Assembly (NCBI GenBank): GCA_022823765.1
Contig: JAJEHK010000038.1
Span: 1-33,969 of the forward strand
Origin: Alphaproteobacteria bacterium
Lineage (GTDB): Bacteria > Pseudomonadota > Alphaproteobacteria > SP197
Length of the DNA: 33,969 bases
Reading direction: 5' to 3'
Under the pieces are notes generated by a model. That model did no database searches. It worked only from the letters and a program-made list of their open reading frames with translations, and had not been told where the DNA came from. The stretch's first letter is position 1; each line of letters starts with the position of its first letter. The position numbers and the translations under genes were made by a program. Of the stretch, positions 4,063-19,226 are shown piece by piece.

Positions 4063-5321
4063 CCGCCTTCGAGTACCGCAACGAGCGGTTGCACGTGGAG
4101 GATGTGGATCTCGCGACCATCGCTCGCGAGATCGGCACACCCTTCTATTGCTACAGCGCGACGGCGCTGCGTCGCCGCTTCCTTCACCTTCGGAACATGC
4201 TGGCCGGGACCGGTACATCGGTCCTGTATGCGGTCAAGGCCAACAGCAACCTCGCGGTCGTTCATCTCCTCGGCGGCCTGGGCGCGGGGGCGGATGTCGT
4301 CTCGGCGGGCGAGATACACCGCTGTCTTGCTGCAGGACTCGGCGCGAACACAATTGTCTTCTCTGGAGTTGGCAAGTCCCGTGATGAGATCGTCTTCGCC
4401 CTGGAGAACGGCATCAGGCAGATCAACATCGAGAGCGAAGGCGAATTCGATCGTATCCTGAAGATCTGCGACGAATTCGACATGGAAGCGCCCGTGGCCT
4501 TCCGGTTCAATCCGGATGTCGATGCGGGCGGACACGAGAAGATCTCCACCGGGAGGCAGACCGACAAGTTCGGTCTTCCCGCGGCAACCATCCGGCACCT
4601 GTGGTCAAGGGCCCGGGCTCATCCCCTGATCCGGCCCGTCGGACTCGCGGTTCATATCGGATCCCAGATACACGATGTCGGACTCTACCGCACCGCCTTC
4701 GACAGGCTGCTGGACCTGGCCGACGCGCTGGATGGTGTCTCCTCGCTTGATCTTGGCGGAGGACTGGGCATCGCATACCACGAAGAGGAAGAAGCAATCG
4801 ACCTCGATGGCTATGCACGTCTTCTGGCGGACATCCGCCGCCGGACGGACGCGGAACTCGCCATTGAACCCGGACGCTGGCTGGTCGCGTCGGCCGGCGT
4901 CCTTGTCACCGGGGTGAACACGGTCAAGCAGGCAGGATCGAAGCGCATCGTCATCGTTGATGCCGCCATGAATGATCTGGTGCGGCCGACACTCTATGAC
5001 GCCCGCCATCCGGTCTGGCCGCACCGCGAGGCAACACCACCCCTCTTCGATTCCGTGGTGGCGGGGCCGGTCTGCGAGTCGGGGGACGTGCTGGCCCACG
5101 ACGTGTTGCTGCCTGGTCTCGACGACGGCGATCTGCTGGCCATCGGCCATGCCGGAGCCTATGGCGCCGTCATGGCCTCAGGTTACAATGGACGCTTGCT
5201 GGTACCGGAGGTGATGGTGGACCAAGATCGCCATGCCGTGGTCCGCAGGCGACCGGGACATGATGAAATGATGGCGCTGGAGACAGTTCCGGACCTGCAA
5301 CGTCATGACACCGTCCGCTGA
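4059..5321 (+). CDS. lysA: diaminopimelate decarboxylase
   Basis: Encodes 420 residues. A PLP enzyme that decarboxylates meso-diaminopimelate to L-lysine, the last step of lysine synthesis. Start chosen as TTG at 4059, giving [18 protein letters not shown], the usual family N-terminus; the track start at 3684 lies inside argH in another frame. Visible motifs: YAVKANSN with PLP Lys60, the HIGSQI strand, the phosphate-binding GGGLGI, EPGRWLV, and GPVCESGD with the catalytic Cys near residue 339. The TTG overlaps the lptM stop (TTGA), and the 3' end overlaps the next gene by 17 bases. A rare start codon plus overlap suggests translation coupled to lptM. Confidence 0.96.
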   Translation: MTAFEYRNERLHVEDVDLATIAREIGTPFYCYSATALRRRFLHLRNMLAGTGTSVLYAVKANSNLAVVHLLGGLGAGADVVSAGEIHRCLAAGLGANTIVFSGVGKSRDEIVFALENGIRQINIESEGEFDRILKICDEFDMEAPVAFRFNPDVDAGGHEKISTGRQTDKFGLPAATIRHLWSRARAHPLIRPVGLAVHIGSQIHDVGLYRTAFDRLLDLADALDGVSSLDLGGGLGIAYHEEEEAIDLDGYARLLADIRRRTDAELAIEPGRWLVASAGVLVTGVNTVKQAGSKRIVIVDAAMNDLVRPTLYDARHPVWPHREATPPLFDSVVAGPVCESGDVLAHDVLLPGLDDGDLLAIGHAGAYGAVMASGYNGRLLVPEVMVDQDRHAVVRRRPGHDEMMALETVPDLQRHDTVR

Positions 5322-7707
5322 CAACAGGGCAGGCCCCGCCCTGGTTGCGCGGCGGTTGTTCCTGGCTCGCCTGGCGCTCGTCTGGGAGGACCTCCTTATC
5401 CGGTCCTGGCGTGCTGCGTCCCTCGTCGTCCTCTTCCTGGGACTCGTCCTGCTCGGAGTGGTGTCATCGCTTCCCGGGATACTCCACATCGCCCTCCTGG
5501 TTTTCTTCGGCATTGCCACGCCTCTTGCCCTGTGGCGGGATTTTCGGGGATTCAGCTGGCCCCGGGAAGAGCAAGTACGACGCCGCCTCGAAATCGGGAG
5601 CGGTGTGCCGCACAGACCGCTGATGGCGCTCGACGATGTCTATGCGGGCGATCTCCAGGACGGGGCGAGTCAGGCGTTGTTCGAAATGCATCGTGCGCGA
5701 GCGGCCGGACGCGTACGCCGCCTGCGGGTCGGCTGGCCGCGCAGCGCGCTGGCCTCGCGTGACCGTTTCGCCCTCAGATATCTTGCCCTGCTGGTTCTGG
5801 TTTGGGGGGTGATTGCCGGCTGGTCACAGGCCCGGGCCAACTTCACCGCCCTGCTGCAGCCGGGATACTCCGTGAGCGGAGGCGCCGGTGCTGCCGGAGA
5901 GGCGACATTCTGGATCACGCCTCCGGCCTATACCGACGTTGCTCCCATCTGGTTTGAGCAGAGCGCAGGGGATCACCCGGTGCCGGTTCCCGTTGGCAGT
6001 GAATTGGTGGTGCAGGTCCGTGGCGGCTCCCGGACACCGGTGCTGACGGTCGATGACACGTCGTTCGATTTCACCAATGCCGGAGGAGAGAATTGGCAGA
6101 TCGCCCACGTGCTCGTCAGCGGCACGCAGTTTTCGATCCTCCAGTCCGGCATTCTGCTGGCTGGGCGGACGATTTCCCTCATCACCGACGAACCGCCCGA
6201 GGTTGCCCTCACGGCGGAGCCCTCCGAGACACTGCGGACGGGGCTGCGCCTCGATGTCGCAGCCAGCGACGACTACGGTCTCGAGTCCGTCACCGGCGAG
6301 ATCCGCCGACCTGACGGCACCGACGATGAAGTGCTGCGGATTTCCGTGCCACTGGCGCAGCCGGGAATCCGTACCGTGTCGGGTCCTGCCTTCTACAATC
6401 TGATGGCGCATCCATGGGCCGGTCACGAGGTGGAGCTGGTTCTGGTTGCCACGGACGAGATCGGTCAGAGGAATACGAGTGTCCTTCATACCTTCGAGTT
6501 GCCCGAGCGATTTTTCTTTCACCCGGTGGCGCGCGAGATAGCGAAGCAGCGCAAGGCCTTCGCTGTCGACAGGGACCTCGCAGGCGAGACGGTCTCGGTG
6601 CTGCACCGTCTTTCAAGGGAACCTGAAGCCTACCTCTCGGAAGTCGACGTTCACCTGGCGCTGGTGACGGGCGCGTTGCGCCTGGACTACAGCGCCGACC
6701 GGGAATCGACAGCCGACGATGTGATCGGACTGATGTGGGAAACGGCACTTGCCATCGAAGAGGGCCCGCTGGCCTTCGCTGAACAGCGGGTGCGCGATCT
6801 GCAGCAGCAGATTCTCGAGGCTCTCAGTGGCGGTGCATCGGATGCCGAGATCGAACGTCTGCTCGCAGAACTGCGCAACGCCATGGACGACTACATGCGG
6901 GCTCTTTCGAACAGGCTGCGTTCGGATCCGGGGGAGTTATTCGACCCCACCGAGGCGCTGAAGGCGGTCGGCAGCCGCGAACTGACTGATCTGGTCGACC
7001 GGATATCCGAATTGGTGCGCACCGGATCACGCCAGCAGGCCCGGACCCTGCTGACCCGTCTCCAGGAGATCATGGAGAGCATTTCGGTGGGCAATCTCAG
7101 TGACCTTTCGGGAAGCTCGTCTGCCGAAGCCGTGGAAATGATCCAGACCATCCGCCAGATCATCAGCGAACAGCAGCAGCTGTTGGACGAGAGTTTCAGG
7201 ATTCTGCGCGATGTCGGGGAAGAGGACGTTGACACGACCGAGCAGGCCGAACGCCAGGCTGATGTAAGGGACGTTCTCAAGAGTTTCATGGAGCGCATGG
7301 AGGAATTCGGTTACGACGTGCCCCGTCACTACAGCCGGGCCAACCGCTCGATGCGTCGCGCCGTTCGCCAACTGAAGGCCAACCGCCCGGGCCATGCGGT
7401 CGATCACCAGACAGAGGCCGTTGATTTCCTGAAGGAAGGCGCCGGCGACATGATGGCGCAGATTCTCGATCTCCTCGGCGAGAGCGTGGGGGGTGATTCC
7501 CAGGGGTTCTTCTCGGCGCCCAGGGACCCGATCGGCCGCAGCCTTGGCAACTCCATCGGTTCCGCCACTGACGATATCAACATTCCCGACAAGGGATCCC
7601 TCATCCGCGTTCGCCAGATACTTGACGAACTGAAGCGACGCGCCGCCGAACAGCACAGGCCCGAGGAGGAGCAGGAGTATCTCCGCCGCCTGCTCAGGCG
7701 GTTCTGA
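5305..7707 (+). CDS. DUF4175 / TIGR02302 family membrane protein
   Basis: Encodes 800 residues starting MTPSADNRAGPALVARRLF, overlapping lysA by 17 bases. Two hydrophobic helices lie at about 38-77 and a third near 157-173, followed by a long periplasm-sized region with beta-rich stretches (about 190-390) and then acidic, coiled-coil-prone helices (about 430-800). The C-terminus RVRQILDELKRRAAEQ followed by EYLRRLLRRF is the conserved tail of TIGR02302/DUF4175, an alphaproteobacterial family of unknown function. The family regularly sits between lysA and ftsEX, as here, so an envelope or cell-division role is a fair guess but not shown. Length is at the low end for the family. Confidence 0.88.
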   Translation: MTPSADNRAGPALVARRLFLARLALVWEDLLIRSWRAASLVVLFLGLVLLGVVSSLPGILHIALLVFFGIATPLALWRDFRGFSWPREEQVRRRLEIGSGVPHRPLMALDDVYAGDLQDGASQALFEMHRARAAGRVRRLRVGWPRSALASRDRFALRYLALLVLVWGVIAGWSQARANFTALLQPGYSVSGGAGAAGEATFWITPPAYTDVAPIWFEQSAGDHPVPVPVGSELVVQVRGGSRTPVLTVDDTSFDFTNAGGENWQIAHVLVSGTQFSILQSGILLAGRTISLITDEPPEVALTAEPSETLRTGLRLDVAASDDYGLESVTGEIRRPDGTDDEVLRISVPLAQPGIRTVSGPAFYNLMAHPWAGHEVELVLVATDEIGQRNTSVLHTFELPERFFFHPVAREIAKQRKAFAVDRDLAGETVSVLHRLSREPEAYLSEVDVHLALVTGALRLDYSADRESTADDVIGLMWETALAIEEGPLAFAEQRVRDLQQQILEALSGGASDAEIERLLAELRNAMDDYMRALSNRLRSDPGELFDPTEALKAVGSRELTDLVDRISELVRTGSRQQARTLLTRLQEIMESISVGNLSDLSGSSSAEAVEMIQTIRQIISEQQQLLDESFRILRDVGEEDVDTTEQAERQADVRDVLKSFMERMEEFGYDVPRHYSRANRSMRRAVRQLKANRPGHAVDHQTEAVDFLKEGAGDMMAQILDLLGESVGGDSQGFFSAPRDPIGRSLGNSIGSATDDINIPDKGSLIRVRQILDELKRRAAEQHRPEEEQEYLRRLLRRF

Positions 7708-13801: not shown

Positions 13802-13909
13802 GAATATACTTCGTCTTCCTGCACAAAAGGATTGACGTTTACCTACCCCGGCCTTAGTGAACATTGAAACACACCGGAATCTCGAAGCGAACCGGGAAAG
13901 GGAATCCAC

Positions 13910-14806
13910 GTGAGCAACGCCAAGATTGCAGAAGCCCTGACGATGATTAACAGGGAAATTGCTTCCGAAGAAGAAAGGCACCGGACGTTGCTGGCCGAAG
14001 CCGCAGCAGTCGGGAAATCTATTGAGGAAATGCAAAAGGCGGCACAAAGCCTGGAGGCGCTGATCGGCGATGCCGCTGCGGAACGCCAGCCGGCAAGGAG
14101 AGGCAGACGTCCCGCCAGGAAAACCGGCAAGGCCCGGTCCGGAAAGGGGCGCGGACGGAAGGCCTCCGGAAAGGCCGTCGGGGGACATGACAGGGTTGCA
14201 CCTGCGAAGGTTCTCGCCGTGATTTCCGGTTCCGGACAACGCGGCGTCAAGCGTTCAGCCCTGAGCGGATTGCTGGCCAATCGCAAGGGAGAGGAGCCGA
14301 CCCGCAAGGCGCTTGACGAGGCGCTGGAGGCGCTTCTTTCGGAAATGAGCATTCGTCGCGAGGGCTACCGCTTCGTGGCGGTGGAGCAGGCTGCATCAGA
14401 GGCCGCGCCCGAGATCGTTCAGGCAGAAACCGAAATTCCCTCGGATGATGGCGACCAGGAACCGGAGGCGGCACAAACCGAGGGCGATTCGATTCCGTTC
14501 GAGGAAGATCCGGCCACAGGCGTAGCTGGCGAATTGGAATTGACCGCACCGGAGGCGCCGTCGGGAGGCGCCAGGCGTGGGCGGCCCCGCAAGCCTGTTT
14601 CCGACGAAGTTGCGCAGGCGATGGCCGCGGTTGCCGGCGTCATCGCTCAGGCCGGAGAAACAGGCTGCAAAATGTCCGCCATTCGTGCGGGCGTCGAGCA
14701 GGCGACCGGTGTGTCGCTTTCCACCGCCGACGCGACACGGGCTGTCAAGGATCTTCTTAAGGAAGGCAGTGTGCATCGCGACGGATATCGATACGTCGCC
14801 AGCTGA
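13910..14806 (+). CDS. duplicated AT-hook-like / C-terminal domain protein, function unknown
   Basis: Encodes 298 residues from GTG at 13910, preceded 8 bases upstream by GGGAAAGGGA. Not recognised as a named family. Layout: residues 1-58 coiled-coil-prone helix; 60-90 very basic (ARRGRRPARKTGK); 97-157 a helical unit ending EGYRFVAV; 158-218 acidic linker; 221-229 ARRGRPRKP, a canonical AT-hook core; 238-297 a second helical unit ending DGYRYVAS. The two units align (V..VI...G..G.K.SA ... A...A...LL.E.S..R.GYR.VA), so an AT-hook-plus-domain module is present twice. The units resemble winged-helix modules. Inferred role: nucleoid or chromatin-like DNA binding, or a regulator. Codon use fits the neighbours. 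Confidence 0.8.
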   Translation: MSNAKIAEALTMINREIASEEERHRTLLAEAAAVGKSIEEMQKAAQSLEALIGDAAAERQPARRGRRPARKTGKARSGKGRGRKASGKAVGGHDRVAPAKVLAVISGSGQRGVKRSALSGLLANRKGEEPTRKALDEALEALLSEMSIRREGYRFVAVEQAASEAAPEIVQAETEIPSDDGDQEPEAAQTEGDSIPFEEDPATGVAGELELTAPEAPSGGARRGRPRKPVSDEVAQAMAAVAGVIAQAGETGCKMSAIRAGVEQATGVSLSTADATRAVKDLLKEGSVHRDGYRYVAS

Positions 14807-18128: not shown

Positions 18129-19226
18129 TCAGTTCAGACGTTCACCGGTATCCTGCGCGAAGTACGACACCTTGCCGAGATCGAAAGCCAGATCGAGCGT
18201 CGATCCTGGCTGGGCCGTGGTTTCGGAATGAAGCCGCGCCGTGACCTGTCTGCCTGCGAGCCGGGAAACGACAAACGTATCCGCTCCGGCCGGCTCAACC
18301 ATGTCGATCAGGCATTTCACTTCCTGCACCTCTTCGCCTGCGCGGAACCCCGCCTCTGCGATGTCTTCGGGTCGCAATCCAAGGATGACCTCCTCGGGCA
18401 GGTCGCCGTTGCGGGTGTCGATCAGCACGACGGGTGCCCCTCCGGTCCGCTCGATCTCAATCCTTGTGCCTCCGCTCTCGCGCGAAGTTCTGGCCGGGAT
18501 CAGATTCATTGCGGGGCTTCCCATGAAGTCGGCGACGAACAGGTTCGCCGGGCGCCGGTAAATCTCGGCCGGCGACCCGATCTGCTGCACGACGCCATCC
18601 TTGAGAACGACGATCTTTGTCGCCAGCGTCATCGCCTCGATCTGGTCATGGGTCACGTAGACCATCGTCGCACCGAGGTCGTGATGCAGCTTCTTGATCT
18701 CCAGCCGCATCTCGACTCGCAGCTTGGCGTCGAGATTCGACAAAGGTTCATCGAACAGGAACAGCTGCGGATCGCGTACGAGCGCCCGACCCATGGCCAC
18801 GCGTTGGCGTTGCCCGCCCGAGAGCTGGCTGGGGCGTCGATCGAGAAGCTGTTCGATCTGAAGCTGTCGGGCCACGTCCTGCAGCTTGCTGGCGCGGGTC
18901 GCACGGTCCACCCCGCGCACCTTCATGCCGAACGTGATGTTCCTGGCCACGGACATGGTTGGATACAGAGCGTAGGACTGGAACACCATCGCAATGTTGC
19001 GGTCCTTGGGGCTGACATGGGTCATGTCGCGCCCGCCGATATGTATCGACCCGCCGGAAATCGACTCCAGCCCCGCTATGCAGTTCAGCAGGGTGGACTT
19101 GCCACAGCCGGACGGGCCCACCAGAACCAGAAAGCCGCCAGGCTCCGCCGACACGTTGATGTCCTTCAGGATTTCCGTCGCGCCATAGCTCTTGTCGAGA
19201 TTTCGTATCTCCAGCATCGCTTCCAT
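18129..19226 (-). CDS. sugar ABC transporter ATPase (MalK/UgpC family)
   Basis: Encodes 365 residues starting [15 protein letters not shown], with GGGGTG before the ATG; a second ATG three codons on is possible. Walker [10 protein letters not shown] (38-46), Q-loop VFQSYALYP, signature [15 protein letters not shown], Walker [13 protein letters not shown] and the H-loop YVTHDQIEA are all intact. A C-terminal TOBE/MalK-type regulatory domain (about 240-365, with GLRPEDI) marks the carbohydrate CUT1 class. It energises the adjoining GtsB/GtsC-like permeases and is the last gene of the operon, 4 bases after the previous stop. MalK-type ATPases are sometimes shared among several sugar importers, so it may serve more than this one. 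Confidence 0.93.

What the first reader, a model, noticed from the sequence alone, without database searches (positions are those of the whole stretch)
13910..14806. A protein with a duplicated AT-hook-like motif plus C-terminal domain
The predicted protein contains two copies of one module: a basic AT-hook-like segment (ARRGRRPARK at 62-71; ARRGRPRKP at 221-229) followed by a ~60-residue helical unit ending in EGYRFVAV or DGYRYVAS. A coiled-coil N-terminus and an acidic linker complete it. RGRP AT-hooks are rare in bacterial proteins and no family is recognised. The domain resemblance to winged helices is inference. It may be a nucleoid-associated or DNA-bridging protein.
Basis: partly seen in the sequence, partly recalled or inferred. 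Interest (0 to 1): 0.6.

Follow-up and report, generated by a model that had tools for sequence, protein, structure and literature searches.

The report
Double winged-helix AT-hook DNA-packing protein
Four related bacteria carry a previously unclassified protein that looks built to grip and bridge AT-rich DNA, and the same four have lost the DNA-binding half of MucR, the usual gene-silencing protein of their class, so the new protein may have taken over its job.

Summary
ORF 13910-14806 (+, GTG, 298 aa) is a real gene: four species of one alphaproteobacterial genus keep it intact, syntenic and under purifying selection (dN/dS 0.25-0.37). It contains an acidic predicted helix (1-58), a basic RGR-rich stretch (59-94), winged helix 1 (95-157), an acidic linker (158-218, no K/R), a near-canonical AT-hook RRGRPRK (222-228) and winged helix 2 (231-298). 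The two units are homologous (35% identity, 0/5000 shuffles) and both are predicted winged helices. The first 'AT-hook' is degenerate. No known family matches, and no relative turned up outside these four species in what was searched. The closest mechanistic precedent is Bacillus Rok, but no homology to Rok was detected.

New: at the mucR locus, the five other genus members with a match encode full MucR, the class's H-NS-like silencer. The four gene carriers instead keep a selected 59-aa stub, the oligomerisation domain alone, zinc finger gone. Best explanation: a nucleoid-associated silencer/bridger that took over MucR's DNA-binding role. Caveat: the four form one clade, so this is one correlated event, and nothing was tested biochemically.

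The parts
13910..14806 (+). Whole gene, 298 aa, GTG start, stop included
   Evidence: Open in four species at the same GTG; dN/dS 0.25-0.37
13832..13860 (+). Candidate promoter: TTGACG, 17 nt, TAGTGA
   Evidence: GGATTGACGT and TTAGTG are invariant in the four upstream regions; below the threshold of the consensus scan, so tentative
13910..14083 (+). Residues 1-58: single long helix, net charge -5, candidate oligomerisation helix
   Evidence: AlphaFold helix 2-58, pLDDT about 90; charge. Coiled-coil state is inferred
14084..14191 (+). Residues 59-94: basic disordered stretch, net +13, with RGRRPARK and GKGRGRK
14192..14380 (+). Residues 95-157: winged helix unit 1
   Evidence: AlphaFold pLDDT 88 alone; homologous to unit 2
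14381..14563 (+). Residues 158-218: acidic linker, 18 D/E and no K/R; the only region with indels
14573..14593 (+). Residues 222-228: AT-hook RRGRPRK, invariant in all four species
14600..14803 (+). Residues 231-298: winged helix unit 2
   Evidence: AlphaFold pLDDT about 91; homologous to unit 1

Best explanation
The gene encodes a nucleoid-associated, H-NS/Rok-like silencer or DNA bridger. The N-terminal helix should make dimers or higher oligomers. Each protomer then offers two DNA grips, each a flexible arginine-rich tail for the AT-rich minor groove followed by a winged helix. The acidic linker spaces the two grips and may fold back on the basic parts when DNA is absent. Multivalent binding would coat or bridge AT-rich, often foreign, DNA and keep it quiet. 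In this one clade it appears to have taken over the DNA-binding role of MucR, the usual alphaproteobacterial silencer, whose gene has been cut down to its oligomerisation domain at its native locus. Shown by computation: the gene, the duplication, its conservation, the mucR truncation, and the co-occurrence. Predicted: the winged-helix fold and the N-terminal helix. Inferred: oligomerisation, AT-rich binding, bridging, silencing, and replacement of MucR. My estimates: DNA-binding chromatin-type protein about 0.8; the full silencer-replacement account about 0.45.
For: Homologous winged-helix units each preceded by an Arg/Gly-rich tail. Foldseek returns winged helices, with the Rok C-terminal domain/DNA complex 5zux third for the full model. 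In Rok an R/G-rich tail (R105-R112, R108-G109 in the groove) plus a winged helix both enter the AT-rich minor groove (PMC6212790). The charge pattern, acidic N-terminus then basic stretch, resembles that described for H-NS, MvaT and Lsr2 (PMC6936261). PF05443: full MucR in 5 of 6 genus members lacking the gene and in all 6 other family members sampled; in all 4 carriers only a 59-aa N-terminal stub at the orthologous locus, under purifying selection with dN/dS 0.15-0.25, with no zinc-finger remnant downstream. No H-NS family protein in the genus.
Against: The four carriers are one clade (100/100 in two trees, second tree and 78), so gene gain and MucR loss could be unrelated events on one branch. 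G009 lacks both the gene and MucR, though it is only 90% complete in 530 contigs. Foldseek E-values are only 0.05 and above, and the winged helix is a very common fold, also in proteins that bind protein rather than DNA. Net charge of unit 2 is -1. Other clade-specific DNA-binding genes were not surveyed.
Confidence: 0.45

Rival explanations
1. A clade-specific sequence-specific transcription factor or accessory chromatin protein, unrelated to the loss of MucR. The two winged helices read one composite operator and the AT-hook only adds affinity.
For: Winged helices are most often part of sequence-specific regulators; tandem DNA-binding domains with a flexible linker suit a composite site. The co-occurrence with MucR loss is one event on one branch.
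Against: No ligand-binding or receiver domain; the gene stands alone, divergent from one neighbour and convergent with the other; long basic and acidic disordered parts are more typical of chromatin proteins.
Confidence: 0.3
2. The winged helices are mainly protein-binding, and the protein is an adaptor of a larger DNA complex such as a replication, repair or condensin-type assembly, with only the basic parts touching DNA.
For: Many Foldseek matches are protein-binding winged helices: cullin WHB, ScpB, RPA32C. Unit 2 is not basic.
Against: Conserved RGR/RGRP motifs directly before each unit; no partner gene nearby; restricted to four species, unlike core replication or condensin parts.
Confidence: 0.15
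3. A host-directed nuclear-mimic (HMGA/linker-histone-like) protein used in association with a sponge host.
For: One carrier is a sponge symbiont bin (PMC5649159); AT-hooks are typical of eukaryotic chromatin proteins; a linker histone is among the weak fold matches.
Against: No secretion signal is evident in the N-terminus, which is a predicted acidic helix; no effector-type neighbours. Not otherwise tested.
Confidence: 0.03
4. Spurious ORF or chance repeat.
For: Alternative long ORFs overlap it on other frames, as usual in GC-rich DNA.
Against: dN/dS 0.25-0.37, frame-preserving indels and four intact orthologues; the repeat exceeds all 5000 shuffles.
Confidence: 0.01

Closest known systems
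Rok (Bacillus xenogeneic silencer; C-terminal domain/DNA complex 5zux)
   Same: N-terminal interaction region, linker, then an Arg/Gly-rich tail directly followed by a winged helix (PMC6212790); 5zux is third in the Foldseek list of the full model.
   Different: Two tail-plus-winged-helix units instead of one, a true AT-hook, an acidic instead of a neutral linker, and no detectable sequence similarity.
MucR/Ros (PF05443)
   Same: Proposed role: silencer and bridger of AT-rich DNA in Alphaproteobacteria (PMC8857273, PMC6250670). Complementary occurrence in this genus.
   Different: Unrelated sequence and predicted fold: winged helices and AT-hook instead of the Ros zinc finger; a long helix instead of the MucR oligomerisation domain.
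H-NS / Lsr2
   Same: Acidic N-terminal helix followed by a basic stretch; RGR core as in the Lsr2 AT-hook-like motif (PMC6212790; PMC6936261).
   Different: The DNA-binding domain is a different fold; PF00816 is absent from the genus and does not match this protein.
H-NST (truncated H-NS), as precedent for the 59-aa MucR stub
   Same: A silencer's N-terminal interaction domain kept as a stand-alone protein without its DNA-binding domain (PMC6936261 section 5.2.2).
   Different: H-NST also lacks the oligomerisation site and counteracts full H-NS. The MucR stub keeps the oligomerisation region, and no full MucR was found for it to antagonise.

Membership tests
Rok family | Detectable sequence similarity to Rok | tested here: not met
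   No Rok chain among PDB sequence matches at E<=10, single sequence or profiles; no Rok-type family in Pfam at E<=5
Rok family | Winged-helix DNA-binding domain preceded by a basic R/G tail | tested here: met
   AlphaFold and Foldseek; prediction only
Rok family | N154-T156-R174 minor-groove triad, N154 and R174 invariant in Rok homologues | tested here: inconclusive
   Judged only from secondary-structure position: the residue just before helix 3 is E128 in unit 1 and S271 in unit 2, not Asn; wing arginines are present. No structural superposition was available
MucR/Ros family | Match to PF05443 (N-terminal oligomerisation domain plus Ros zinc finger) | tested here: not met
   No PF05443 match for this protein in Pfam at E<=5; the genome's only PF05443 match is the stub on another contig
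AT-hook proteins (HMGA type) | GRP core flanked by basic residues | tested here: met
   Met once, at 222-228 (RRGRPRK, invariant; 1 of 20,000 shuffles); not met at 62-71 (RGRRP, SGRRP in one orthologue)
H-NS-like silencers as a functional class | N-terminal oligomerisation domain | not testable with these tools
   A confident long N-terminal helix is predicted; oligomerisation needs light scattering
H-NS-like silencers as a functional class | Preferential binding and bridging of AT-rich DNA, silencing of foreign genes | not testable with these tools
   Needs EMSA/ITC, a bridging assay, ChIP-seq

The most novel reading that the evidence does not exclude
In one alphaproteobacterial clade the class-wide silencer MucR lost its DNA-binding domain. 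An unrelated, apparently new protein with two Arg-rich-tail-plus-winged-helix units replaced it, while the orphaned MucR oligomerisation domain was kept under selection as a separate 59-aa protein, possibly a partner or modulator of the new silencer. This would be a further, independent DNA-binding solution for H-NS-type silencing and a natural case of silencer replacement.
Probability: 0.35. Interest if true: 0.8.

Novelty: new variant of a known kind. Interest (0 to 1): 0.58.

Why it matters
The known silencers of foreign DNA (H-NS, MvaT, Lsr2, Rok, MucR) use unrelated DNA-binding domains, and how a lineage swaps one for another without losing control of its foreign genes is, to my knowledge, unresolved. 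Here the old silencer is visibly cut down at its native locus and a candidate replacement sits in the same genomes. The pair makes a concrete prediction that can be tested by complementing a mucR deletion in a laboratory strain.

Tried and rejected
Known family: none in Pfam, NCBIfam, PHROGs or PDB. The weak unit-level Pfam hits (HTH_psq, HVO_A0261_N, EutK_C; E 0.05-0.2) are sub-threshold.

Mobile-element origin: no match in viral contigs, plasmids or phages.

Single-module relatives: the unit profile gave four hits at E 1e-3 to 1e-4 among 399 genomes of the phylum. All four lie in BamA POTRA repeats, so they were rejected as chance or compositional resemblance.

A syntenic but diverged copy in gene-lacking species: the slot between the Ldh_2 and methyltransferase genes was read in G002 and G004. 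By eye it holds a nitroreductase/BluB-like gene in G002 and about 7 kb of other genes in G004, and no relative.

A first LDH tree was wrong because three rows had been translated on the wrong strand (first tree); it was redone correctly.

Papers on a MucR truncated to its N-terminus, or on replacement of MucR, were looked for and not found.

Full report
WHAT WAS CHECKED. The ORF at 13910-14806 (+) starts with GTG and encodes 298 aa. Searching 60 related genomes found intact orthologues in three other species of the same genus (G006 88%, G003 82%, G007 81% identity). All begin at the same GTG and lie between a methyltransferase gene and an Ldh_2 dehydrogenase gene. Pairwise dN/dS is 0.25-0.37 over the gene, with indels only in the linker. 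It is a real protein-coding gene.

ANATOMY. Residues 1-58 form one long helix with high confidence, net charge -5. Residues 59-94 are a basic, disordered stretch, net +13, with RGRRPARK and GKGRGRK. Residues 95-157 and 231-298 are the two copies of the unit. Between them lie a 61-residue linker with 18 acidic and no basic residues, and the AT-hook RRGRPRK at 222-228. The two units align without gaps over 61 positions (score 88, shuffled mean 24.3, 0 of 5000 shuffles as high), and as profiles with probability 96%. AlphaFold gives helix-helix-helix-strand-strand for both. Foldseek against PDB returns winged helices for the full model and for unit 1 alone; E-values are about 0.05 and above, so the fold class is supported but no closer kinship.

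DISTRIBUTION. The gene is in 4 of 10 species of the genus and was found nowhere else: 16 genomes of the family and order, 385 of the class, the genome-contig scan (three known relatives only), viral contigs, plasmids and phages. One match of E 0.004 in G010 runs through two stop codons and overlaps a long unrelated ORF on the other strand, and was set aside as chance. The genome contigs and viral scans were seeded with N-terminal peptides, so a relative of the C-terminal unit alone could have been missed there; the unit profile was searched separately in 399 genomes of the phylum and gave only hits to BamA POTRA domains. The four carriers form one clade, support 100/100 in both usable trees (second tree). 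One carrier is bin56 from the sponge Aplysina aerophoba (PMC5649159).

THE MUCR LINK. Asking which known silencer these genomes use gave the main new result. PF05443 (MucR/Ros) is full length in five of the six genus members without the gene (G001, G002, G004, G005, G008) and in all six other family members sampled. The sixth, G009, has no match, but it is a 90% complete assembly in 530 contigs. The four gene carriers have only a partial match. Reading those loci shows a stand-alone 59-aa protein, MEKAMLSAIDQADILEMTTEIVTAYVAGNSVPPDDVPELIKRIHATLAGLATEKPQDPT in G000 (about C22:18485-18664), matching PF05443 positions 1-44. Its neighbours are rpiB and glyA on one side and livM on the other, as for full mucR in G001, G002, G005 and G008; in G004 the contig ends beside mucR and only the livM side can be seen. 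The stub is therefore mucR itself, cut down. No zinc-finger remnant was found around it. An endonuclease/exonuclease/phosphatase-like ORF sits between it and livM in all four, and not in the others. The stub has dN/dS 0.15-0.25 and 81-88% identity to the G000 copy, so it is maintained. In Brucella MucR the oligomerisation region is residues 33-44 with L36, L39 and I40 (PMC6250670); the stub keeps the same spacing (V/L-P-E-L-I; matched by pattern, not by alignment to the Brucella protein). H-NS family proteins are absent from the genus.

INTERPRETATION. MucR is the H-NS-like silencer of Alphaproteobacteria (PMC8857273, PMC6250670). A lineage that loses its DNA-binding half might be expected to need another silencer. 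The protein studied here is a fitting candidate: acidic N-terminal helix, basic stretch, and minor-groove-type arginine motifs directly before winged helices. The nearest mechanistic precedent is Rok, where an R/G-rich tail and a winged helix both enter the AT-rich minor groove (PMC6212790). It is not a member of the Rok family by sequence. With two such units per chain and a possibly oligomerising N-terminus it would be highly multivalent, suited to bridging. The acidic linker could shield the basic parts when DNA is absent. These last steps are inference.

LIMITS. The replacement idea rests on one branch of one tree, and other clade-specific genes could equally fill the role. Most genomes here appear to be metagenome bins. 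The structure models come from 4 and 8 sequences. DNA binding, oligomerisation, bridging and silencing are untested.

Noticed in passing
G000:C22 about 18485-18664 (L077 2986-3165); also L078, L079, L080: mucR reduced to a 59-aa stand-alone N-terminal oligomerisation domain in four species, at the native mucR locus and under purifying selection (dN/dS 0.15-0.25). An H-NST-like orphan without a full-length partner; used in the argument but deserves study of its own.
   Followed up: yes
L077 3290-4144 (G000:C22): An ORF resembling endonuclease/exonuclease/phosphatase-family proteins (by eye, not searched) sits between the mucR stub and livM in the four carriers only.
   Followed up: partly
L051 (G002:C16), L053 (G004:C167): The slot between the Ldh_2 and methyltransferase genes varies across the genus: a nitroreductase/BluB-like gene in G002, about 7 kb of other genes in G004, this gene in the four carriers.
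   Followed up: partly
L086 (G001:C3:125521-125838): G001 has a second, shorter and more diverged MucR (match to positions 3-108 of 123).
   Followed up: no
window 5305-7707: Full-length DUF4175 protein (800 aa, E 5e-185), a family without known function, beside a PLP decarboxylase gene.
   Followed up: no
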